NCBI GenBank assembly: GCA_900318885.1
Contig: ONMN01000011.1
Location: forward strand, 1 to 48,807
DNA: 48,807 nt
Reading direction: 5' to 3'
DNA from: an uncultured Prevotellaceae bacterium
Lineage (GTDB): Bacteria > Bacteroidota > Bacteroidia > Bacteroidales > Bacteroidaceae
The notes under the pieces are model-generated. The model searched no databases, was not told where the DNA came from, and was given only the letters and a program-made list of their open reading frames with translations. Numbering within the stretch: the first letter of the stretch is position 1; each line of letters opens with the position of its first letter. The position numbers and the translations under genes are program-made. Below, piece after piece: positions 38,406-48,590 of this stretch.

Positions 38406-38894
38406 TTACTTAAAGGTGTATTCTGTGTAGCTCTCACTACGTCCATTCATCCGCAATCGCTTCATCGTTGACGACTTGCTGTCAACAACGAGGACGAAGG
38501 AGGTAAACATCTGACGCTTTTTACCAGAAGGAGTAATGGTGATGGTTTGCTCATTACCCTTAGTTATCACCTTGACATCATCACTGGCAGGAATCGGCTG
38601 GTGATTGATGACGGCTTTCAATACAGCATGAAAGTCGGCAAAAAGTGGATTCTTGCGGCTGTCGGTGACATGTTTCTTACCTTTCTGAGTCATGGTAAAC
38701 TGCGTACCATCCATCAGCAACTGGTCTTTGCCTCCATCCGTAGAAATGCAGATGTAGTCAGGTTTGCGGATAGTCACATCCCCAGTGGTTACAACATCGG
38801 TCTTAACGGCCTTCGAATGACTCACTTTGGTCACGGTCTGTGCTTGTGCGCAAAGTGCGAACAGGCAGCATAACAATAATAGTAAATGTTTCAT
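38406..38894 (-). CDS. LolA-like periplasmic lipoprotein carrier
   Basis: A 162-residue exported protein from ATG at 38894 (a GTG two codons upstream is also in frame). The signal peptide MKHLLLLLCCLFALCAQAQ ends before the mature TVTKVS. The rest is beta-rich with the LolA-like phrases GDVTIRKPDYICIST, DQLLMDGTQFTMTQKGKKH and QMFTSFVLVVDSKSSTMKRL, ending in the YTEYTF strand. LolA-like proteins shuttle hydrophobic molecules across the periplasm. In aryl-polyene type clusters an extra LolA copy accompanies the MMPL exporter, as here. Last gene of the acyl cluster. Confidence 0.8.
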   Translation of the reverse strand: MKHLLLLLCCLFALCAQAQTVTKVSHSKAVKTDVVTTGDVTIRKPDYICISTDGGKDQLLMDGTQFTMTQKGKKHVTDSRKNPLFADFHAVLKAVINHQPIPASDDVKVITKGNEQTITITPSGKKRQMFTSFVLVVDSKSSTMKRLRMNGRSESYTEYTFK

Positions 38895-38908
38895 ATGCAC
38901 ATTCTTGA

Positions 38909-40417
38909 TTATAATTTTTCGTTTTTAATAGTTTCCAATGTCTTGAATGCCGTCATCGTCACGCCCTCCAGTCCGTGTAAGACCAGACTCTGTCCCGTTA
39001 AGAACAGATTGGGAATAGGCGTCTTAGGCGACAGCATGGTTATCAGTGACTGGCGACAGTCCTTCCTGATGCCAAAGGCCGAGCCACAAGGCGACAAAGT
39101 ATAGTCGCGCCAGGTCAACGGGGTACTGGTATAACATTTCTCTGACCCATGGTCAGAGTGTGGCATTGCATTCTCTGACCCATGGTCAGAGTGTGGCGTT
39201 GCATTCTCTGACCCATGGTCAGAGTGTGGCGTTGCATTCTCCACCATATCTCGCAAACCGGGTATCACCCGTTCTGCCAAACGAATGCACTCATCGGCCA
39301 TCCGCTGTTTTTGTTGTTCATAAATATCGCCGCGCCGCCCAACAAGGGTGTTCTCCCAGTCTTTGCAAAGCGTCCACGGCATAGGAGTCAGCAGGTCTAT
39401 CTGTCGCGTATAGTCTCCATTCTCTGGCACCCGGCAACTCACCATCACACCCCCCACGCCGTCCATATCCTCATGGAATGACCACACATTAGCCTTCTTG
39501 TAGACGTATTTGTTGTGGTTGAAATAAGGCAGCACATCCGGTTTCAGTACCAACGAGGCCGTAAACATGCCGAAAGTATTCTCCAGTGCATTAATTCGGC
39601 GACGGAAGATGCCTTTCATTATACGCGAGTCCTTCAACCAGCCAAACGTCAGTTGCGGGTGTACATCGCTAATGAACGCTTTGGCTTCGTAGGTTTGGCC
39701 ATTTGAACATTTTGCCGCCACAATCCTGCCGTCCTGCTCCACGAGTTCCTCCACCTCAGCACGGCAGACAACCTCTCCACCAAAGGACTTGATGTCGTTT
39801 ACCAGTGAATCGATGATCATGTTGCCACCTCCCTTAAGCCGCCAACTGCTCTGGATATAACTGCTCATCGAATGGGCAAAGTTAAACAACGGCAGCGACT
39901 CCCGCCTCAGTTCCATTTTCATGGCTGCGGCAGACAGCACGTTAATAAGCAGCGGGTCATGAAACAGCGATGACAGCCAGTCGTAGGCGTTCACCTCGAC
40001 AGTATCCTCCATTGGTGGCAGGTGGCGAAGTGTGTCGACATACTGCCTCAAGGCGGTCTTCTCCTGAGGGAAATATTCCCCCAGCACACTGGCAAAGTGG
40101 TCAAAACCCTCAGCCAAAGGGAATGTCTGGTTTCCGATGGTCACTTGGTCGAAACCATCAGCATCCAACCGCACCCAGGGTAGTTGCATCAGTCCCAGCT
40201 GCTCAAAAGCCTCATGCAATGGTTGGCCCTCTGCCAGTCCACCGACATAATGCAAACCCGTGTCGAATTCGAAGTCACCCCTGCGATAGCTCTGCAGACA
40301 ACCACCCGGCTGTGTCTGGCGTTCGAGCACGAACACGCTCCTACCCTCCTTCGCCAATTGTCTGGCACACACCAGTCCACCCAATCCGCTACCTATGACA
40401 ACGACATCATACATCAT
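38909..40417 (-). CDS. CrtI-like FAD-dependent oxidoreductase, with 33-residue repeat insertion
   Basis: A 502-residue phytoene-desaturase/retinol-reductase family flavoprotein. The N-terminal dinucleotide motif is VVVIGSGLGGLVCARQLA (about 4-21), GGCLQS follows, and the C-terminal FAD motif is NLFLTGQSLVLHGLEG. Such enzymes saturate or desaturate polyene-type lipids, a fitting partner for a ketosynthase and dehydratase. Between MVE and KCYTSTPLTWRDY (about residues 392-427) lie three 11-residue repeats ENATPHSDHGS (one Thr-to-Met change), encoded by palindromic 33-bp units. Without them the sequence would join MVE to KCY directly. The ATGA start overlaps the MMPL stop. Confidence 0.87.
   Translation of the reverse strand: MMYDVVVIGSGLGGLVCARQLAKEGRSVFVLERQTQPGGCLQSYRRGDFEFDTGLHYVGGLAEGQPLHEAFEQLGLMQLPWVRLDADGFDQVTIGNQTFPLAEGFDHFASVLGEYFPQEKTALRQYVDTLRHLPPMEDTVEVNAYDWLSSLFHDPLLINVLSAAAMKMELRRESLPLFNFAHSMSSYIQSSWRLKGGGNMIIDSLVNDIKSFGGEVVCRAEVEELVEQDGRIVAAKCSNGQTYEAKAFISDVHPQLTFGWLKDSRIMKGIFRRRINALENTFGMFTASLVLKPDVLPYFNHNKYVYKKANVWSFHEDMDGVGGVMVSCRVPENGDYTRQIDLLTPMPWTLCKDWENTLVGRRGDIYEQQKQRMADECIRLAERVIPGLRDMVENATPHSDHGSENATPHSDHGSENAMPHSDHGSEKCYTSTPLTWRDYTLSPCGSAFGIRKDCRQSLITMLSPKTPIPNLFLTGQSLVLHGLEGVTMTAFKTLETIKNEKL
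39140..39238. repeat. three tandem 33-bp units, each with an 8-bp palindrome, inside a gene
   Basis: Units start at 39140, 39173 and 39206, period exactly 33. Each begins CTCTGACCCATGGTCAGAG, an 8-bp perfect inverted repeat around CAT, followed by a 14-base TGTGGC(A/G)TTGCATT spacer. Units differ only at one position (A or G at unit base 25). Reading frame is kept across all three. The unit reappears in part at 48706-48719, outside the gene. Confidence 0.95.
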
Positions 40418-42876
40418 TTCTTCTGTCGGTTAAGCCATCGATAGACAGCGGGCTGTAAAACATAAGCTAAAACAACTGCCGAGAGCAGACCAACAAGCGT
40501 TGAGAATCCGACACTACGAATAGCAGGATGATTTGCGAGAAGCATGCTGCTGACGGTCGTTATCAGGGTGACGGCACTAAGGAGAATGGCTGTCTTATGA
40601 TAGTGTAGTTTGTTGTCGTTGTCAGACGTAAGCCCATTCATGACGAAGATGCTGTAGTCCACTCCGATACCGAAAATAAAAGTCGAGATGATGATGCTGA
40701 TGAGATTGAAGCGCACGTCGAACAATACCATTGCTCCAAGCACGATGAGCCAACTGAATAAAATCGGCATGAAGCCCAGCAAGGTGTGCTTAATGTTAAA
40801 ATGGAAACTCAGCAGCAACACGACAAAGACGAAAAGCATGGAAATCCACTGCAGCACGTTGAAGTCATCATTCATCTGGAGCAGCGTGTCGGTAGTATAG
40901 TAATAAGTGTCGAGCACCAGCAGATTGGGGTCGCTGGCAATGGCATCACAGATACGGATATAGTCGCTCTCGCTGCTGCGCACGGAGTCGTTGGCACAGC
41001 GTACAGAGGTAAAGCAAAGATAATCGTCGCCATACGAATGTTCCATCAGCGTCGACTGATAACCTGCGGGAATCAGCCCTGCGGCATAGAGCGAGTCTGG
41101 CTCGTAGTCGCGGGCAGCCGCTTCGAAGAAAGTATCGAAAGCCTCGGGAGTAAGGTCGGCCTGCGGAGCCGTCTGCGCTATCAGCATGCGCACCTTGCCG
41201 AGCCTATCCGGTGTCCAGTAATTCTTCCATGCATCGATGCGCTCCTGCTGAACATGCATGGGAACGAAAACCTGATTGGTATGAGTATAGTCCTTGACAA
41301 GACCGAGTTGCTGCAGCGAGTCGAGCTTACGGTCAAGGATGGCGAAATGGCTGATGGCCTCCTCCATCGTTTGGCCTTTACTGGCAAAGTATTTGGTCTT
41401 GTCGCCGGTATAGGTCTTGCTGCGAAGCAGATTTTCAGAGTGTTCGGTCATCGGGTCCTCGTAGCCCAGATTATGCATGTCGGCATCGAAACGAATGCCG
41501 CCCACAAGGTAGGCCCCTACTCCAACGACTATCACCAGACAAACAATGGCCAACAAGGGTTTGTTGCGGTCAAAGGGATAGCTGTTGATAGCCTCGATAA
41601 AGGCAGGGAAACCTTTTCCCTCTGACCTTTGACCTTTGACCTTTGACCCCTGCACCTCTAACAACTGCGGTATATAAACCAATGAGAACAGCGTCGTGCC
41701 GAGGATGGCAAAGGCGGCAAACAATCCGAAGTCCTGCAAAAGGGCGGTATTGATGAAGATAAGTCCTGCAAACGAACCGATGGTGGTGACACAGCCCAGC
41801 AAGACGGGCTTTACCTGGTCGCGCAGCAATTGCTCTCCATCAGCCACATACTGGTGATGGGTCAGAATATGGAGTACATAACTCAGGGCGACACCCAGCA
41901 CCACACCGCCTATGCCTAAAGCCAGCAACGAGAACTCCCCTTTCAGCCAATACATGATCGACAGGCCGAAGAGGGTGCCGAAGACAACTGGCAACAACAG
42001 CAGGGGAATGGTATCCCAACGACGAAAACAGACAAATAGGAATACCAAAACCAAAACGAGTGCCCCGGCAATGGTAGTCGTCAGGTCGCGCTTGATGGTC
42101 GTGGAGTTGTAATAACCGCTTGCAGGCGTGCCGTGATAACTGATGAGTACATCAGGATTGGTCGTGGCAAACTGCGCGATGAGTGTGTTCAACCGCTCAA
42201 AGAGTGCAGAACCTTGTCCTGTATTCGTCGAAGAGAAACGGGGTGTCAAAAAGGCGATGCACACCGTGGAATCGGGCACGAAGAAGTGGTTGTCAATGGT
42301 CTTATAACTGCCGGCACTCAACAATGGTGCCATCTGCTCAGCCAACACATTGCGCATGCCCAGCGGGTCCATCTCAATCAGTTCCGGAAACATCTCTCCC
42401 ACTTCGCTCAACAGGTCGTCGTGGTTTTCTTGCATCTGTTGGGCGAAGTGTTCACGTGTCAATAGTGAGTCGAAATGTGTGTATGCCGTAGTGTCGATAT
42501 AGGCTGGCAAATGCTCTGACAGATAGTCAATGCCGCTGGGTAGCAGGTCTTCATCCAAACGATAGAATAAGTCTTCTACCAGCATCGAATCTTGTTTGAG
42601 TGAGTCAGCAAATGCATCGCAGACTTGCGTCAGTTTCCCGACGTCACTCCCCTCAAACAGCACGAATGTCTTGTCCTTGATTTTCAGGTCGGCAAAGGCG
42701 AGTTTGGTCGTGCCGTCCTCATTCTTCGACGACGGCATCAGCTTGTTGATGTCCTCCTCCAAATGCAGTTGTGCGGCAAAATAGCCAAAGAAAGCGAACA
42801 AAGCTATCATCGACAGCCAGCAAATCAGTCGATGGTTGCGAAAATATCGATATATGTGAATGAAGAAACTTGTCAT
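40414..42876 (-). CDS. MMPL/RND-family exporter
   Basis: An 820-residue inner-membrane protein of the RND/MMPL type: one span, a large periplasmic domain (about 35-235), five or six clustered spans (about 255-410), a second periplasmic domain (about 455-620) and another cluster of spans to the C-terminus. Family landmarks include LVLVFLFVCFRRWDTIPLLLLP and FIFGIGVDYSIFVMNGL. MMPL exporters in aryl-polyene and mycobacterial lipid clusters move large lipids across the inner membrane. Overlaps its neighbours by 4 bases on both sides. The Gly/Lys-rich KVKGQRSEGKG linker at about 412-423 is encoded by heptamer repeats. Confidence 0.88.
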   Translation of the reverse strand: MTSFFIHIYRYFRNHRLICWLSMIALFAFFGYFAAQLHLEEDINKLMPSSKNEDGTTKLAFADLKIKDKTFVLFEGSDVGKLTQVCDAFADSLKQDSMLVEDLFYRLDEDLLPSGIDYLSEHLPAYIDTTAYTHFDSLLTREHFAQQMQENHDDLLSEVGEMFPELIEMDPLGMRNVLAEQMAPLLSAGSYKTIDNHFFVPDSTVCIAFLTPRFSSTNTGQGSALFERLNTLIAQFATTNPDVLISYHGTPASGYYNSTTIKRDLTTTIAGALVLVLVFLFVCFRRWDTIPLLLLPVVFGTLFGLSIMYWLKGEFSLLALGIGGVVLGVALSYVLHILTHHQYVADGEQLLRDQVKPVLLGCVTTIGSFAGLIFINTALLQDFGLFAAFAILGTTLFSLVYIPQLLEVQGSKVKGQRSEGKGFPAFIEAINSYPFDRNKPLLAIVCLVIVVGVGAYLVGGIRFDADMHNLGYEDPMTEHSENLLRSKTYTGDKTKYFASKGQTMEEAISHFAILDRKLDSLQQLGLVKDYTHTNQVFVPMHVQQERIDAWKNYWTPDRLGKVRMLIAQTAPQADLTPEAFDTFFEAAARDYEPDSLYAAGLIPAGYQSTLMEHSYGDDYLCFTSVRCANDSVRSSESDYIRICDAIASDPNLLVLDTYYYTTDTLLQMNDDFNVLQWISMLFVFVVLLLSFHFNIKHTLLGFMPILFSWLIVLGAMVLFDVRFNLISIIISTFIFGIGVDYSIFVMNGLTSDNDNKLHYHKTAILLSAVTLITTVSSMLLANHPAIRSVGFSTLVGLLSAVVLAYVLQPAVYRWLNRQKK
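41621..41653. repeat. CTTTGAC heptamer tandem repeat in the MMPL gene
   Basis: GACCTTTGACCTTTGACCTTTGACC repeats a 7-base unit between 41624 and 41648, giving the cytoplasmic linker QGSKVKGQRSEGKG. The 21-base multiple keeps the frame. Similar KVKGQ-type linkers recur in Bacteroidetes proteins as far as I recall, which suggests a shared slippage mechanism. Confidence 0.85.
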
Positions 42877-43298
42877 TGCTGCACAAATATCTTAAGTTGC
42901 GCCTTGGCTATCATTTCCTTGCCAATACGACTCTCACCGCTAGCAATAGTCACATTGCCGAACGTAAAGCCGAATTCGATGGACGTTTCTATCCTCTCGT
43001 CCAGGCGAGGGCGACGCTGACATTCGAAACGTTTCACCTCACCGATAAGACCCACGGGGGGATTGTCAAAATGCTGATTCAGTATCTGACAGCCCATCAT
43101 TGCCGAGCACGACTGGGCGATATGCTCTATCAGACATGTCTCGGAGATGGTGCCGTCGGGCAGCATGAAATAATTGTCAGCGCGGACGGTGAGAGCGGTG
43201 ACGGCATGGGTGTCGTCACACGTCTCAATCTCGTCCAGCATGATGAATGGTTCACGCTGCGGAATCACCTGTTTGATGTCTTCGTCTTTCAGCTTCAT
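42873..43298 (-). CDS. hotdog-fold 3-hydroxyacyl-ACP dehydratase-like protein
   Basis: A 141-residue FabZ/FabA-superfamily protein. QREPFIMLDEIE at the N-terminus, TCLIEHIAQSCSAMMG with the catalytic Glu58 position, and VGLIGEVKRFECQRRPRLDERIETSIEF are recognisable. It should dehydrate the beta-hydroxyacyl intermediate. The expected GHFPG histidine motif of FabZ is absent: the aligned stretch reads NYFMLPDGTIS. Dehydratases of aryl-polyene clusters also diverge here, so the enzyme may use another residue or be inactive. ATGA overlaps on both sides. Confidence 0.8.
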   Translation of the reverse strand: MKLKDEDIKQVIPQREPFIMLDEIETCDDTHAVTALTVRADNYFMLPDGTISETCLIEHIAQSCSAMMGCQILNQHFDNPPVGLIGEVKRFECQRRPRLDERIETSIEFGFTFGNVTIASGESRIGKEMIAKAQLKIFVQQ

Positions 43299-43540
43299 GC
43301 AGGAATGTTCTGTTCAATGTAGTCGTATAAATCATTGAAAGTCTGGATTTTGTGCAATTCTGATACAGGAATGGTTACCTTATAGTTCACCTGCAGCAGT
43401 GCCACCATATCCACCAGACTCAGACTGTCAAGACTCAAAGTTTCCTTGATGTTTGCATCCGGAGTGATGTCACTTACCTCTACTTCAAACTCACCTGCGA
43501 GCAGCTCATTAACCTGCTCAATAATTTCATTTCTTGTCAT
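43295..43540 (-). CDS. acyl carrier protein
   Basis: An 81-residue ACP. The phosphopantetheine serine is Ser39 in LSLDSLSLVDMVALL. The DSL motif, acidic helix II, and C-terminal YIEQNIPA are as expected. It is distinct from the housekeeping AcpP, which normally sits beside fabF. The start overlaps nothing upstream: 184 bases separate it from the ketosynthase stop, including a MITE-like inverted repeat. The 3' end overlaps the dehydratase by 4 bases. Confidence 0.92.
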   Translation of the reverse strand: MTRNEIIEQVNELLAGEFEVEVSDITPDANIKETLSLDSLSLVDMVALLQVNYKVTIPVSELHKIQTFNDLYDYIEQNIPA

Positions 43541-43596
43541 AATTAATTTTTACTGTTTTAATTTTATAATGTTTTAATTTAAGTTTCGCATTCGCT

Positions 43597-43711
43597 CAAC
43601 TCTTTTGGAGTTAAGGAGTTATGACATCAGTCTAGTATCTCCTCATCCTCCATGGAATTATCAGTGTAATGGGTATTGTCTTAACTCCATAACTCCTTTA
43701 ACTCGAAAGTT
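43597..43711. repeat. MITE-like inverted repeat between ketosynthase and ACP genes
   Basis: CAACTCTTTTGGAGTTAAGG and the following AGTTATG (left end, 43597-43623) are near-complementary to 43688-43711, with 16 of 17 bases pairing in the core (43608-43623 with 43688-43704). The ends are flanked by a 13-base direct repeat AATGTTTTAATTT at 43568-43580 and 43713-43725. The interior, 64 bases, codes for nothing I can support. The arrangement looks like a small mobile element or a long hairpin. Confidence 0.7.
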
Positions 43712-43724
43712 GAATGTTTTAATT

Positions 43725-44945
43725 TTACATGTTCTTCACTATCAGCGTCGAATTGGTTCCTCCGAAACCGAACGAGTTGCTCAGGAACTGGTCGAAGGCA
43801 ATCTCCTTGGTCTCACCCAGCACATTGATGCAGGCCGTCTCTTCGTCGGGATTCTCGAAATTCACGTTGCCGGCAATGAAGCCGTTCTTCATCATCAGCA
43901 TCGAATAGATAATCTCCGAAGCACCAGCCATCCACATCTCGTGACCCGTCTGACTCTTCGTCGAAGTCACGGGCACATTACATTCGCCAAAGAACTGGGC
44001 GATGGCCTGAGCCTCACGGGCATCACCAATCTTCGTCGAGGTGGCATGGGCGTTCACATAGCCAATCTCCTTCGGGCTAACACCGGCGTCCTTCAGACAC
44101 AGCTCCAGCGAACGGGCAGGACCAGCCACATTAGGTGTCGAGATATGGTCACCATTGCCCGAGAATCCCCAGCCTACGATTTCTGCCAGGATGGGAGCAC
44201 CACGGCGGACGGCACTCTCGTAACTCTCCAGTATCACCGTTGCAGCACCACCGCCCGGCACTAGTCCGTTACGGTCGCGGTCGAAGGGACGGCTGGCCTT
44301 AGTGGCGTCATCGTCGTCGCGCAAGGCAAACGACTGGATGCCGTCGAACGATGCCACGCCATACATGTTGGCCTCCTGAGCACCGCCACAGACCACACAC
44401 TCCTGCAGGCCGTTGCGGATGAGCAATGCACCCAGTCCGATTGACTGTGAACCGCTGGCACAAGCCGCAGAGGCTGTCAGATTGATACCCTTCAGATGAA
44501 ACAGGCATGCCAGGTTCATCGTCACCGTCGAGTTCATCGACTGGAAGATGGCACCACTGCCACAGGCGGCCGTCGAACCGCAATTGCGGAACTTATCGAG
44601 GGCAAGCATCGTAGCCTCGGCTACGGAGTCGTTACCATAAATGATACCCACCTCATGCTGGTCGATATAGTCCTGATCCATGCGGGCAGCCTCCAAGGCG
44701 TCTTTCGTAGCCATATAGGCATACTGTGCCTCCTCGGGCATAAACTGCCGCTGGTTGCGACCGATAAACGGTTTCAAGTCAGGTCGCGGCACATTGGCTG
44801 TAAACGGTGAGCGGAAGCCCGCATCGACACGTTCCTGACTCTTGATGATTCCACTCTTTCCTTCATACAGGGACTGGCGCACCTCGTCGAGCGTTACGCC
44901 CAGACACGACCATATTCCCATTCCTGTAATTACTACGCGATTCAT
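43725..44945 (-). CDS. beta-ketoacyl-ACP synthase (KAS II/aryl-polyene type)
   Basis: A 406-residue condensing enzyme of the thiolase fold. The Cys-His-His triad is complete: Cys162 in TASAACASGSQS, His300 in NAHATST, His335 in KSQTGHEMWMAGA. The GFGGTNSTL C-terminal motif is present. It elongates acyl chains on the ACP encoded 184 bases downstream. The GHEMWM sequence differs from the usual GHxxGAAG and resembles aryl-polyene ketosynthases in my memory only. No partner chain-length factor is adjacent. Preceded by repeats that provide AAGGAG-like ribosome sites. Confidence 0.9.
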   Translation of the reverse strand: MNRVVITGMGIWSCLGVTLDEVRQSLYEGKSGIIKSQERVDAGFRSPFTANVPRPDLKPFIGRNQRQFMPEEAQYAYMATKDALEAARMDQDYIDQHEVGIIYGNDSVAEATMLALDKFRNCGSTAACGSGAIFQSMNSTVTMNLACLFHLKGINLTASAACASGSQSIGLGALLIRNGLQECVVCGGAQEANMYGVASFDGIQSFALRDDDDATKASRPFDRDRNGLVPGGGAATVILESYESAVRRGAPILAEIVGWGFSGNGDHISTPNVAGPARSLELCLKDAGVSPKEIGYVNAHATSTKIGDAREAQAIAQFFGECNVPVTSTKSQTGHEMWMAGASEIIYSMLMMKNGFIAGNVNFENPDEETACINVLGETKEIAFDQFLSNSFGFGGTNSTLIVKNM

Positions 44946-44961
44946 AATATCTATTATTAAA

Positions 44962-44992
44962 CTTCTTAACTCCTTAACTTCTTAACTCCTTA
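44962..44992. repeat. 16-bp repeat CTTCTTAACTCCTTAA x2
   Basis: Copies at 44962-44977 and 44978-44992. On the minus strand they read TTAAGGAGTTAAGAAG twice, a doubled Shine-Dalgarno-like block before the ketosynthase ATG (44945). The repeat also encodes the last residues (KELRS) and stop of the GNAT-like gene. The same GAGTTAAGGAGTT motif forms the arms of the element at 43597-43711. Confidence 0.8.
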
Positions 44993-46113
44993 CAATAGCA
45001 CCTGCGGCGCTTGACCGTCTCCGGGTGCAGCGGCTTCCACTGCGACAGTTCACGAACGTTGTCCTCCAACTGCGGGCCCGTCTCAGCCCAGCGGAATCCA
45101 TATTTATTATAAATAGGTATGAGGTCTTCGAAGAACAACGCGTTCACGCCATAGCCCTGCAGGTCGGGACGCACGGCAATCAACAGCATCTCGGCATTGT
45201 CCTCACACTTCCACTTCAGCGCCTTCAACAGATGATACCACCCAAACGGCCACAGGCTGCCATCCGCCTTGCGCATGGCCTGCGAAAGAGCGCCCATCGT
45301 AACGGCAACGCCCACGACGTTGTCCTTGTCGTCCACGACGACAGGCATGAGATGCAAGTCAACAACGGGCAGGTATTTGTGTACGAACTCGTCCACCTGC
45401 TCGTCCGAGAATCTGGTAAATCCGAACAACGGCGCGTAGGCCTCGTTCAACAAGTCGAAGACCTTCTTGCCATAGTCCTCGCGAACCATTCGGCTAGTGA
45501 CCTTGATAACCCTCAGCCCCATCTGTTCCCTGCAATACTGAGCTACGCGCTGGTATCTGGCGGGAACCTCCTCAGGCACATTGATGCGAATCTGCACCCA
45601 GTCCACCTCCTTCTCCAGTCCTAAAGCCTCCATGTGGCGGGGATAGTAGTTATGGTTATAGATGGTGTTGGGCGAACCCATCATGTCGAAATCTTCAACC
45701 AGCATACCTTCCTTGTCGAAGTCGGTAATGCCCAGCGGACCCTGGATGCGCGTCATGCCATACGACCGTCCCCACTCGGAAACAGCATCTATCAAGGCTC
45801 TCGACACGTCCTGGTCGTCAATGAATTCTATCATCGAGAATCGCACGCATTTCGTCTGCCACTTCTCGTTGGCACGCTGGTTGATGATGCCCACGATGCG
45901 ACCTACAGGCTTTCCGTCCTGATAGGCCACGAAGGGCTGGAGACGCAATGCGCCCTGCTCGGCCTTTGTCTTTTCCGGGTCAATCTGCGTACGGACCTCG
46001 CTCCGCATGTCAGGCACATATTGCGGACAATCGCGATAGATGCGGTCGGTCAGATGAACGAAATCATTCACCTCCTTCCGGCACGTCACTTTTGTCACCT
46101 CTATCTTATTCAT
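44974..46113 (-). CDS. GNAT-like acyltransferase family protein
   Basis: A 379-residue protein of a large uncharacterised Bacteroidetes acetyltransferase-like family. The N-terminal half has PFVAYQDGKPVGRIVGIINQ (GNAT motif A-like), and GMTRIQGPLGITDFDKEGMLVEDFD and PNTIYNHNYYPRHMEALGLEKE are conserved family stretches. The C-terminal half (about 200-379) has a second GNAT-like fold with RPDLQGYGVNALFFEDLIPIYNKYGF. Substrate unknown. It is the first gene of the acyl cluster transcript. It may be a bystander, or it may acylate the polyene head. Confidence 0.8.
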   Translation of the reverse strand: MNKIEVTKVTCRKEVNDFVHLTDRIYRDCPQYVPDMRSEVRTQIDPEKTKAEQGALRLQPFVAYQDGKPVGRIVGIINQRANEKWQTKCVRFSMIEFIDDQDVSRALIDAVSEWGRSYGMTRIQGPLGITDFDKEGMLVEDFDMMGSPNTIYNHNYYPRHMEALGLEKEVDWVQIRINVPEEVPARYQRVAQYCREQMGLRVIKVTSRMVREDYGKKVFDLLNEAYAPLFGFTRFSDEQVDEFVHKYLPVVDLHLMPVVVDDKDNVVGVAVTMGALSQAMRKADGSLWPFGWYHLLKALKWKCEDNAEMLLIAVRPDLQGYGVNALFFEDLIPIYNKYGFRWAETGPQLEDNVRELSQWKPLHPETVKRRRCYCKELRS

Positions 46114-46139
46114 CCGTTGTTCTTTTATTTAATTGCGCG

Positions 46140-46171
46140 CAAAGGTACGAATAAACGAGCAAAGAACCAAA
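46140..46171 (-). promoter_or_regulatory. complete promoter of the acyl cluster
   Basis: On the minus strand: TTTG (46168-46171), 20 bases, TACCTTTG (46140-46147), 26 bases before the GNAT-like ATG. It separates the cluster from the LUD gene upstream. Confidence 0.85.
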
Positions 46172-47889: not shown

Positions 47890-47904
47890 TAAATGACAGC
47901 GAAT

Positions 47905-48339
47905 ATGGCAACAGACAAAACCGCTTACTGGCTCGACATAGCCAACGAAGACCTTGAGGTGGCCGAGGATCTATTCAAGACCAAACGCTGGCTCTACGTC
48001 GCATTCATGTGCCATCAAGTCATCGAGAAGACGCTCAAGGCATACTGGTGCGCTGTGCGCGATGATGAACCGCCCTATGTCCATAACCACCGTCGGCTGG
48101 CTGAGGGTTGCGGCCTCTATGATAAAATGAACGATGAACAGCGACGTTTCCTCGGTATGATCAACAACATGAACATTGAGGCCCGATACCCTGACTACAA
48201 GACTGGCATAGCCCGCTCGCTCAGCGATCAGAAAAGCCGTGAGATTATTGATAAGACAAAACAGATGCAGCAATGGATAATACAAGAGTTCTTACCAGAG
48301 ACGAAGCCCTCCAGCTCGTCCGAGACTACAAGCGAGTAA
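47905..48339 (+). CDS. HEPN-domain protein (PF05168 type)
   Basis: A 144-residue helical protein from ATG at 47905; ATG at 47893 adds 4 residues. The pattern MATDKTAYWLDIANEDLEVA, LYVAFMCHQVIEKTLKAYW, HNHRRLAE and EARYPDYK matches the HEPN family commonly paired with minimal nucleotidyltransferases. The RNase-type Rx4-6H motif is not evident; only RDDEPPYVH (R-x7-H) is seen. Thus nuclease activity is uncertain. Its last 67 bases overlap the nucleotidyltransferase gene. In MntA-HepT type pairs, HEPN is the toxin and is AMPylated by its partner. Confidence 0.9.
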   Translation: MATDKTAYWLDIANEDLEVAEDLFKTKRWLYVAFMCHQVIEKTLKAYWCAVRDDEPPYVHNHRRLAEGCGLYDKMNDEQRRFLGMINNMNIEARYPDYKTGIARSLSDQKSREIIDKTKQMQQWIIQEFLPETKPSSSSETTSE

Positions 48340-48590
48340 TCGCTCCACGGTTCAGCACTGAGCCGAAAGTTTACATGTACGGCTCCTACTCCAAGGGTTA
48401 TCCCAAGCCCGAAAGCGATATTGATGTAGCTGTCATCGTTCCCCATGTCGATGGCGACTGGCTGACCATATCCACCGACCTCTGGCTTGATGTTGACAAG
48501 GTAAACATCCTCATCGAACCTGTATTGCTTGAAGAGGGGAACCACTCACCCCTCTACGACGACGTGATGCGGACTGGAGTGGCAGTGTAA
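48273..48590 (+). CDS. minimal nucleotidyltransferase (MNT, antitoxin-like)
   Basis: A 105-residue protein of the polymerase-beta fold. The signature GSx10DxD is exact: Gly37-Ser38 and Asp49/Asp51 in GSYSKGYPKPESDIDVAV. A third acidic residue is expected in the LDVDKVNILIEP strand. It could AMPylate the HEPN partner or another target. The start lies 67 bases inside the HEPN gene, a long overlap that enforces co-expression. Followed by a strong terminator at 48625. Confidence 0.92.
   Translation: MDNTRVLTRDEALQLVRDYKRVIAPRFSTEPKVYMYGSYSKGYPKPESDIDVAVIVPHVDGDWLTISTDLWLDVDKVNILIEPVLLEEGNHSPLYDDVMRTGVAV

What the first reader, a model, noticed from the sequence alone, without database searches (positions are those of the whole stretch)
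38406..46171. Compact seven-gene acyl-chain cluster without starter or reductase genes
One strong promoter (46140-46171) leads into GNAT-like protein, ketosynthase with full Cys162-His300-His335 triad, dedicated ACP (Ser39), dehydratase-like hotdog protein, MMPL exporter, CrtI-like flavoprotein and LolA-like carrier, four of them joined by ATGA overlaps. pfkA with its own promoter and the LUD gene bound the cluster, so it looks complete. Aryl-polyene and flexirubin clusters share the ketosynthase, ACP, dehydratase, MMPL and LolA core, but normally add ketoreductase, ammonia lyase, AMP-ligase, acyltransferases and thioesterase. Their absence suggests either a reduced polyene/lipid pathway borrowing FabG and FabD, or a different envelope lipid. 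This is the best candidate here for an undescribed system.
Basis: partly seen in the sequence, partly recalled or inferred. Interest (0 to 1): 0.78.

Follow-up and report, generated by a model that had tools for sequence, protein, structure and literature searches.

The report
Reduced single-ketosynthase envelope-lipid gene cluster
A rumen Prevotella carries a small, intact gene set, stripped down from the pigment clusters of its phylum, that probably builds a modified fatty chain, fixes it to an amine and ships it to the outer membrane, and that seems to borrow a missing enzyme from a second cluster in the same genome.

Summary
The seven genes, triad, ACP serine, overlaps and promoter are real. 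The cluster is intact and under purifying selection (dN/dS 0.010-0.136).

It is a reduced member of a Bacteroidales operon family, [GNAT or LPLAT]-KS-ACP-DH-(DHb)-(MMPL)-CrtI-(FabG)-(LolA)-(TE)-(DUF5686). Its KS type forms one clade (100/100) beside the first KS of flexirubin clusters, apart from FabF and from elongating KSs.

The loss is patterned: a flexirubin-type FabG lies elsewhere in 19 of 22 genomes without the cis copy, against 5 of 36 with it (p=4.6e-8); this genome has one on contig C86. The 'dehydratase' is an ApeP-like hotdog without the FabZ catalytic His. The GNAT is a tandem GNAT; a sister clade has an LPLAT acyltransferase in its place, which suggests a chain-transfer step.

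Best reading: an amide-linked acyl envelope lipid whose ketoreduction is shared with a flexirubin-type cluster. The product is unknown.

The parts
46140..46171 (-). promoter, TTTG-N20-TACCTTTG, 26 bp before the GNAT start codon
   Evidence: exact match to the pattern, 6 in window against 0.23 expected; sequence
44974..46113 (-). tandem-GNAT acyltransferase (379 aa), proposed to transfer the finished chain to an amine
   Evidence: Pfam Acetyltransf_1 26.7 bits over cut-off 20.7; AlphaFold2 model pLDDT 84 whose best PDB matches are tandem GNATs, TM 0.55-0.62 of the query; two paralogues in the genome at 42 and 41%
43725..44945 (-). ketosynthase (406 aa), ApeR/flexirubin-first-KS type, triad C162-H300-H335
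43541..43724 (-). 184-bp KS-ACP gap holding an imperfect inverted repeat of the form GGAGTTA..; 40 bp in the nearest relative
   Evidence: (repeat seen by eye)
43295..43540 (-). acyl carrier protein (81 aa), Ser39
   Evidence: Pfam PP-binding 46 bits; nearest APE protein ApeF
42873..43298 (-). ApeP-like hotdog protein (141 aa); FabZ Glu position kept, catalytic His (GHFPG) absent
40414..42876 (-). MMPL/RND lipid exporter (820 aa), ApeM-like
   Evidence: Pfam MMPL 51.3 bits
38909..40417 (-). CrtI-like FAD oxidoreductase (502 aa)
   Evidence: found in 60 of 63 loci (window included) with KS identity of 74% or more
39138..39241 (-). 33-bp tandem repeat, 3.2 copies, in frame inside crtI
   Evidence: absent from the 17 relatives aligned; L128 has one unit
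38406..38900 (-). LolA-like periplasmic carrier (164 aa from GTG; an ATG lies at 38894)
   Evidence: fold LolA

Best explanation
An intact, reduced operon of the flexirubin/aryl-polyene superfamily. Shown: the genes, their kinship, their conserved order, purifying selection, and the loss of the cis ketoreductase in genomes that mostly hold a flexirubin-type one elsewhere. Inferred: the single ApeR-type KS extends an acyl starter (from primary metabolism, since no loading gene was found) with malonyl units on the dedicated ACP; the beta-keto group is reduced by the FabG of the flexirubin-type cluster on contig C86, in trans; the CrtI-like flavoenzyme then desaturates, isomerises or reduces the chain; the ApeP-like hotdog is a non-catalytic partner or holds the chain, any dehydration being done by another hotdog enzyme; the tandem GNAT transfers the chain from ACP to an amine; the MMPL pump and the LolA-like carrier move the N-acyl lipid to the outer membrane. 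In the sister clade an LPLAT takes the place of the GNAT and would make an ester.
For: KS tree: 41 compact-cluster KSs form one clade (100/100) nearest flexirubin first KSs; FabF_Ec groups with this genome's own FabF-like KS (99/94), ApeO with the elongating KSs (100/99). Component match to E. coli APE: KS-ApeR 36%, ACP-ApeF, DH-ApeP, relatives' FabG-ApeQ 47%, TE-ApeK, MMPL-ApeM. Upstream of the KS: GNAT in 60 of 63 loci with KS identity of 74% or more, LPLAT in 1 of 63; GNAT in 0 of 48 and LPLAT in 24 of 48 loci below 74%. FabG in trans: 19 of 22 genomes (this one included) against 5 of 36, p=4.6e-8; without two near-duplicates 17 of 20 against 5 of 36, p=2e-7 (scored by hand). The cis-FabG state changes at least 8, most simply 11, times on the KS tree. 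Nearest contrast: window and L128 lack FabG and hold the C86-type KS and FabG; L037 and L038 (KS 98%) have FabG and no second flexirubin-type copy. dN/dS window against L128: 0.010-0.136 for all seven genes. ApeR is reported to make polyenes of up to four double bonds in vitro (PMC8358021, passages read).
Against: No product, substrate or acceptor is known. A flexirubin first KS was found in only 12 of the 22 genomes without cis FabG (8 of 36 with; p=0.022), so in 7 of the 19 the trans FabG was found without its usual KS. Three of 22 genomes have neither a cis nor a flexirubin-type FabG (G361, G367, G020). Most genomes are incomplete assemblies, and related genomes are not independent. GNAT fold does not prove an amine acceptor or an acyl-ACP donor. 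Fifteen of 60 loci have neither hotdog, so dehydration may not be part of the pathway. One close relative (L038, KS 98%) has no GNAT upstream of the KS. Two loci found by the CrtI query (L042, L046) have crtI and lolA without a KS beside them, so the core is not invariable; loci were otherwise chosen by KS. In E. coli apeR is the one ape gene whose loss left the primary lipid in place (PMC8253772, passages), so an ApeR-type KS need not be the main chain builder. The C86 cluster showed no ammonia-lyase, so its own product is not certain.
Confidence: 0.5

Rival explanations
1. The operon is an accessory arm of the flexirubin-type cluster on C86 and makes one part of the same pigment molecule, so the two clusters form one pathway.
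For: The FabG-sharing pattern (19 of 22 against 5 of 36); both clusters have KSs of one lineage, CrtI-like, MMPL and LolA genes.
Against: 28 of 36 genomes with a cis FabG, and 10 of 22 without it, showed no flexirubin first KS elsewhere, so the operon often stands alone. It has its own ACP, exporter, carrier and transferase.
Confidence: 0.15
2. A short, pigmented polyenoyl amide: the ApeR-type KS alone makes a chain of up to four conjugated double bonds, as ApeR does in vitro, which the GNAT caps.
For: ApeR homology; ApeR products of up to four double bonds (PMC8358021, passages); no enoyl reductase among the seven genes; ApeI-like hotdog with the catalytic His in 24 of 60 loci.
Against: In the window the ApeI-like hotdog is absent and the ApeP-like one lacks the His; none was found in the C86 stretches searched; 15 of 60 loci have no hotdog at all.
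Confidence: 0.15
3. The operon supplies a special acyl chain to a known Bacteroidota aminolipid (glycine lipid, flavolipin or ceramide), the GNAT being the amide-forming enzyme of that pathway.
For: In one relative (L122) a GlsB above the NCBIfam cut-off (355 against 300 bits) and an LPLAT lie directly upstream of GNAT-KS. Bacterial ceramide synthase is, as recalled, also GNAT-like.
Against: One locus of 63 only. The window GNAT hits neither GlsB nor any other NCBIfam model. No comparison with ceramide synthase was made.
Confidence: 0.1
4. A decaying remnant of a flexirubin cluster without function.
For: Loss of FabG, second hotdog, thioesterase and DUF5686 relative to other members; repeat expansion in crtI.
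Against: All seven frames open, triad and Ser kept, dN/dS 0.010-0.136 against L128, consensus promoter.
Confidence: 0.04

Closest known systems
Flexirubin clusters (Persicobacter psychrovividus pPP6, Aureispira anguillae pAUEa) and the flexirubin-type cluster on C86 of this genome
   Same: First KS at 55-58% identity on the plasmids and 56% on C86, ACP, ApeP-like hotdog (plasmids), MMPL, CrtI-like oxidoreductase next to the MMPL, LolA; FabG of the same type in relatives.
   Different: No KS-CLF pair, ammonia-lyase, AMP-ligase, methyltransferase, LPLAT or glycosyltransferase in the operon; a tandem GNAT instead; LolA below the LolA2_flexi cut-off (48.3 against 125; the C86 one scores 232).
Aryl polyene cluster of E. 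coli CFT073
   Same: ApeF, ApeP, ApeM and ApeR counterparts in the window; ApeQ, ApeI and ApeK counterparts in relatives.
   Different: No ApeO, ApeC, ApeH, ApeD, ApeJ, ApeB counterparts; no CrtI-like or other flavin oxidoreductase is annotated among the 18 E. coli genes.
Anammox ladderane / Desulfotalea polyunsaturated-hydrocarbon FASII clusters
   Same: FabF-type KS with a phytoene-desaturase-like flavoprotein in an anaerobe's FASII-type cluster (PMC2649909, passages).
   Different: No radical SAM enzyme among the window genes tested; GNAT, MMPL and LolA present; no direct sequence comparison made.
Glycine-lipid synthases GlsB/GlsA
   Same: N-acyl transfer by a GNAT and acyl transfer by an LPLAT; a GlsB and an LPLAT lie beside the operon in L122.
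   Different: The window GNAT is not GlsB by NCBIfam.

Membership tests
aryl polyene / flexirubin cluster | KS-chain length factor elongation pair (ApeO-ApeC type) | tested here: not met
   Only one KS in the operon, of ApeR/first-KS type
aryl polyene / flexirubin cluster | aryl starter supply (ammonia-lyase, AMP-ligase) | tested here: not met
   None of the seven genes; none labelled as one in the GNAT-type operons, where one lyase and one ligase served as references
aryl polyene / flexirubin cluster | FabB-like second KS (ApeR) lineage | tested here: met
   Clade beside flexirubin first KSs; ApeR is the best APE match
aryl polyene / flexirubin cluster | dedicated ketoreductase (ApeQ) | tested here: not met
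   Absent in window; in 38 of 60 loci, 36 full-length, and in trans on C86
aryl polyene / flexirubin cluster | catalytic dehydratase (ApeI type, with the His) | tested here: not met
   Only the ApeP-like partner, no His
aryl polyene / flexirubin cluster | MMPL exporter and LolA-like carrier | tested here: met
aryl polyene / flexirubin cluster | conjugated aryl polyene product | not testable with these tools
   needs mass spectrometry
housekeeping FabF | KS groups with FabF | tested here: not met
   FabF_Ec pairs with own_L213, not with the window KS
ladderane-type FASII cluster | radical SAM enzymes in the cluster | tested here: not met
   none among the ten genes scanned around the operon
ladderane-type FASII cluster | CrtI-like flavoprotein beside a FASII-type KS | tested here: met
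GlsB glycine N-acyltransferase | passes NCBIfam NF053696 | tested here: not met
   no NCBIfam hit
bacterial ceramide synthase (bCerS) | GNAT orthology and serine palmitoyltransferase in the genome | not tested
   no bCerS sequence was at hand; no SPT search was made
LolA2_flexi (flexirubin LolA) | NCBIfam NF053544 cut-off 125 bits | tested here: not met
   48.3 bits; C86 LolA 232.3 bits

The most novel reading that the evidence does not exclude
A distinct, undescribed class of Bacteroidales envelope lipid: a chain built by one ApeR-type ketosynthase, remodelled by a CrtI-type flavoenzyme in an anaerobe, and capped interchangeably as an amide (tandem GNAT) or an ester (LPLAT), with its ketoreductase repeatedly lost from the operon because a co-resident flexirubin-type cluster supplies it, i.e. 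two biosynthetic clusters tied together by one shared enzyme.
Probability: 0.35. Interest if true: 0.78.

Novelty: new variant of a known kind. Interest (0 to 1): 0.6.

Why it matters
Rumen genomes are full of gene clusters called aryl polyene by rule (2,800 in 8,160 rumen genomes, PMC8241843, passages read). This operon, recovered from many gut and rumen Bacteroidales, is not equipped to make an aryl polyene by the known route: it has one KS, no chain length factor and no recognised aryl starter gene, and begins with an amide- or ester-forming type of enzyme. If right, such loci make another outer-membrane lipid, and the repeated loss of FabG beside a second cluster gives a directly testable case of two pathways sharing an enzyme.

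Tried and rejected
Housekeeping FabF: rejected by the KS tree. Decayed remnant: disfavoured by dN/dS. E. coli-type promoters and terminators: at chance level. Reading the aryl-binding residues of ApeR (Tyr135, Phe202) onto the window KS by a fixed numbering offset: E. coli ApeR itself did not match at those positions, so the mapping is unreliable and I drew nothing from it. Sequence search of the GNAT against PDB, single and profile: nothing useful. PHROGs with the KS: no hit. Plasmid search with the CrtI-like protein: 19 records, best 31%, the two best in flexirubin clusters. One search was my mistake: I gave coordinates of one locus with the name of another, so the query was an unrelated ORF; its result is not used.

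Scoring choices. The gene-content count rests on 111 loci that hold a KS of this type, the window included; L040, L042 and L046, which came from the CrtI query and hold no such KS, and the flexirubin loci were left out. The tblastn limit there was loose: 38 of 60 loci count as having FabG, of which L116 is a 37-residue fragment and L148 a broken copy; 36 are full-length, and FabG follows crtI directly in 35. In the cis/trans test L116 was counted as cis-absent and L148 as cis-present (leaving L148 out: 17 of 20 against 5 of 35, p=2.9e-7); L040's genome G020 was counted as cis-absent from its CrtI-LolA junction; L043/G011 was left out because its FabG lies beside the operon on the other strand; L163 was not scored because the stretch ends too soon. 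The window's genus is judged from the nearest named contig (RUG405); the genome itself is unnamed.
Full report
What is there. Seven open reading frames lie head to tail on the minus strand between the LUD gene and pfkA: a GNAT protein, a ketosynthase (KS), an acyl carrier protein (ACP), a hotdog protein, an MMPL exporter, a CrtI-like flavoprotein and a LolA-like carrier. Pfam supports five of the seven above its cut-offs; the hotdog has no Pfam hit and the LolA is just below. NCBIfam gives FabZ (29.8 bits, far under 155) for the hotdog and LolA2_flexi (48.3, under 125) for the carrier. AlphaFold2 models give a tandem GNAT (pLDDT 84) and a LolA fold (pLDDT 87). The promoter matches the Bacteroidales pattern exactly. 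It is the counterpart of ApeP, whose E. coli form also lacks that histidine; the counterpart of ApeI, which has it, is present in 24 of 60 loci and absent here.

It is intact. Against its nearest relative (L128, RUG405, an uncultured Prevotellaceae assembly) dN/dS is 0.127 for the GNAT, 0.010 KS, 0.015 ACP, 0.133 hotdog, 0.050 MMPL, 0.136 CrtI and 0.018 LolA. A 33-bp repeat in crtI stands at about three copies here, one in L128 and none in the 17 other relatives aligned.

Where it comes from. The KS is 55-58% identical to the first KS of flexirubin clusters on two marine Bacteroidota plasmids. In a tree of 71 KSs the 41 from operons like this form one clade (100/100) next to flexirubin first KSs; this genome's FabF-like KS pairs with E. 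coli FabF, and E. coli ApeO with the elongating KSs. Long branches are present in that tree (ApeO, ApeR, FabB and others), so only the groups, not the deep order, are used. Against the 18 proteins of the E. coli aryl polyene cluster the KS matches ApeR best (36%), the ACP ApeF, the hotdog ApeP, the MMPL ApeM; in relatives FabG matches ApeQ (47%), the second hotdog ApeI and the thioesterase ApeK. ApeR is described as a FabB-like homodimer that in vitro makes polyenes of up to four double bonds and raises the output of ApeO-ApeC (PMC8358021: abstract and passages read), and as the initiating KS, though in E. coli its loss left the primary lipid in place (PMC8253772, passages). So the window operon keeps the ApeR branch and the transport arm, and lacks the elongation pair and any recognised aryl starter gene.

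The operon family. I fetched 60 stretches and the 80 loci. Gene content was read by tblastn in 111 loci with a KS of this type, the window included, and counted. Of 63 loci whose KS is at least 74% identical, the gene directly upstream of the KS is the GNAT in 60, an LPLAT acyltransferase in 1, something else in 1, and a contig end in 1. Of the 60 where crtI is seen, ACP is present in 60, GNAT in 58, DH in 45, DUF5686 in 39, FabG in 38 (36 full-length), LolA in 36, MMPL in 36, second hotdog in 24, thioesterase in 21, a CDP-alcohol phosphatidyltransferase in 10 and an LPG_synthase_TM protein in 6 (Pfam names). In 48 loci with a more distant KS the GNAT is in none and an LPLAT is directly upstream in 24. 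The flanks differ: within the stretches held, pfkA is near in 3 of 63 loci and LUD in 1, so the operon is a portable unit. The steady core of KS-selected loci is transferase-KS-ACP-CrtI; two loci found by CrtI alone (L042, L046) have no KS beside crtI.

The missing ketoreductase. FabG is in the operon in most close relatives, directly after crtI in 35 of 60 loci, including L037 and L038, whose KSs are 98% identical to the window's. But its absence follows a rule. Among 58 genomes with a scored operon (59 less G011), a flexirubin-type FabG (59-67% identical to the operon FabG) lies elsewhere in 19 of 22 without the cis copy, this genome included, and in 5 of 36 with it, Fisher p=4.6e-8; dropping two near-identical KSs gives 17 of 20 against 5 of 36, p=2e-7. 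The cis state changes most simply 11 times on the KS tree, at least 8 by well-supported branches. A flexirubin first KS elsewhere is found in 12 of 22 against 8 of 36 (p=0.022), so the link with a whole second cluster is weaker than the link with its FabG; many assemblies are incomplete, and three of the 22 genomes have no such FabG. In this genome the trans copy is on contig C86 (61%), within a flexirubin-type cluster whose LolA passes the LolA2_flexi cut-off (232 against 125), though no ammonia-lyase was found there. My reading is that ketoreduction is needed and that the second cluster's FabG can do it; correlation does not show it.

How it probably works. The KS extends an acyl group on the ACP; FabG in trans reduces the keto group; the CrtI-like flavoenzyme alters the chain, by analogy with the phytoene-desaturase-like proteins proposed to act on lipid chains in anammox and Desulfotalea FASII clusters (PMC2649909, passages); the GNAT or, in the sister clade, the LPLAT removes the chain from the ACP onto an acceptor; MMPL and LolA carry it outward, as proposed for APE and flexirubin (PMC8253772 and PMC11885536, passages). 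Only the genes, kinship, selection and FabG pattern are shown. Whether the chain is unsaturated is open: the window has no hotdog with the catalytic His, no hotdog was found in the C86 stretches, and 15 of 60 loci have no hotdog at all.

Known or new. I did not find this operon described. The searches were (open-licence PMC full text only; listings seen, plus passages of the papers named here). Such loci may well be among the 2,800 rumen clusters labelled aryl polyene by antiSMASH (PMC8241843, passages), and the flexirubin gene-cluster cloud of Bacteroidetes has been mapped (PMC9248904, passages). I therefore call it a new variant of a known kind, interest 0.6.

Seen in passing. Contig C68 of the same genome carries another KS (45% to the window's) overlapping an ACP gene, directly downstream of a 1,920-residue phage tail tape-measure gene. 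Six viral contigs carry this KS, all six with the ACP beside it. One paper search listed nothing on it by title or abstract.

Noticed in passing
L225 8791-10283 (G000:C68, outside the window); viral contigs L226-L231: A phage-borne ketosynthase-ACP pair: KS with the Cys/His/His motifs, 45% to the window KS, overlapping an ACP gene, directly downstream of a tape-measure gene in a prophage-like stretch; six viral contigs (59-99% identical KS) carry it, 6 of 6 with the ACP, 4 of 6 with a tape-measure match in the piece held. An earlier count said 'upstream', which is wrong.
   Followed up: partly
window 39138-39241: A 33-bp tandem repeat (3.2 copies) expanded in frame in the CrtI-like gene; one unit in L128, none in the 17 relatives aligned.
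   Followed up: partly
window 43541-43724 and 44960-44992: Intergenic repeats of the form AACTCCTTAACTCC / GGAGTTATGGAGTTA between operon genes, one forming (by eye) an imperfect inverted repeat in the KS-ACP gap.
   Followed up: no
window 47893-48590: HEPN gene followed by an overlapping nucleotidyltransferase ORF (Pfam HEPN 79 bits; MntA_antitoxin 28.8, below cut-off 60), resembling a HEPN-MNT toxin-antitoxin pair.
   Followed up: partly
L122 5926-8141 (G097): A GlsB glycine N-acyltransferase (355 bits, cut-off 300) and an LPLAT lie directly upstream of the GNAT-KS operon in one relative.
   Followed up: partly
L116 and L148: Damaged FabG copies in the operon: a 37-residue fragment in L116 and a broken FabG in L148, which look like the loss caught in progress.
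   Followed up: no
L036 3318-7439 (G000:C86): AMP-ligase and MMPL genes of the flexirubin-type cluster carry in-frame SMVNGQ-type repeats, seen by eye; similar repeats recur elsewhere on C86.
   Followed up: no
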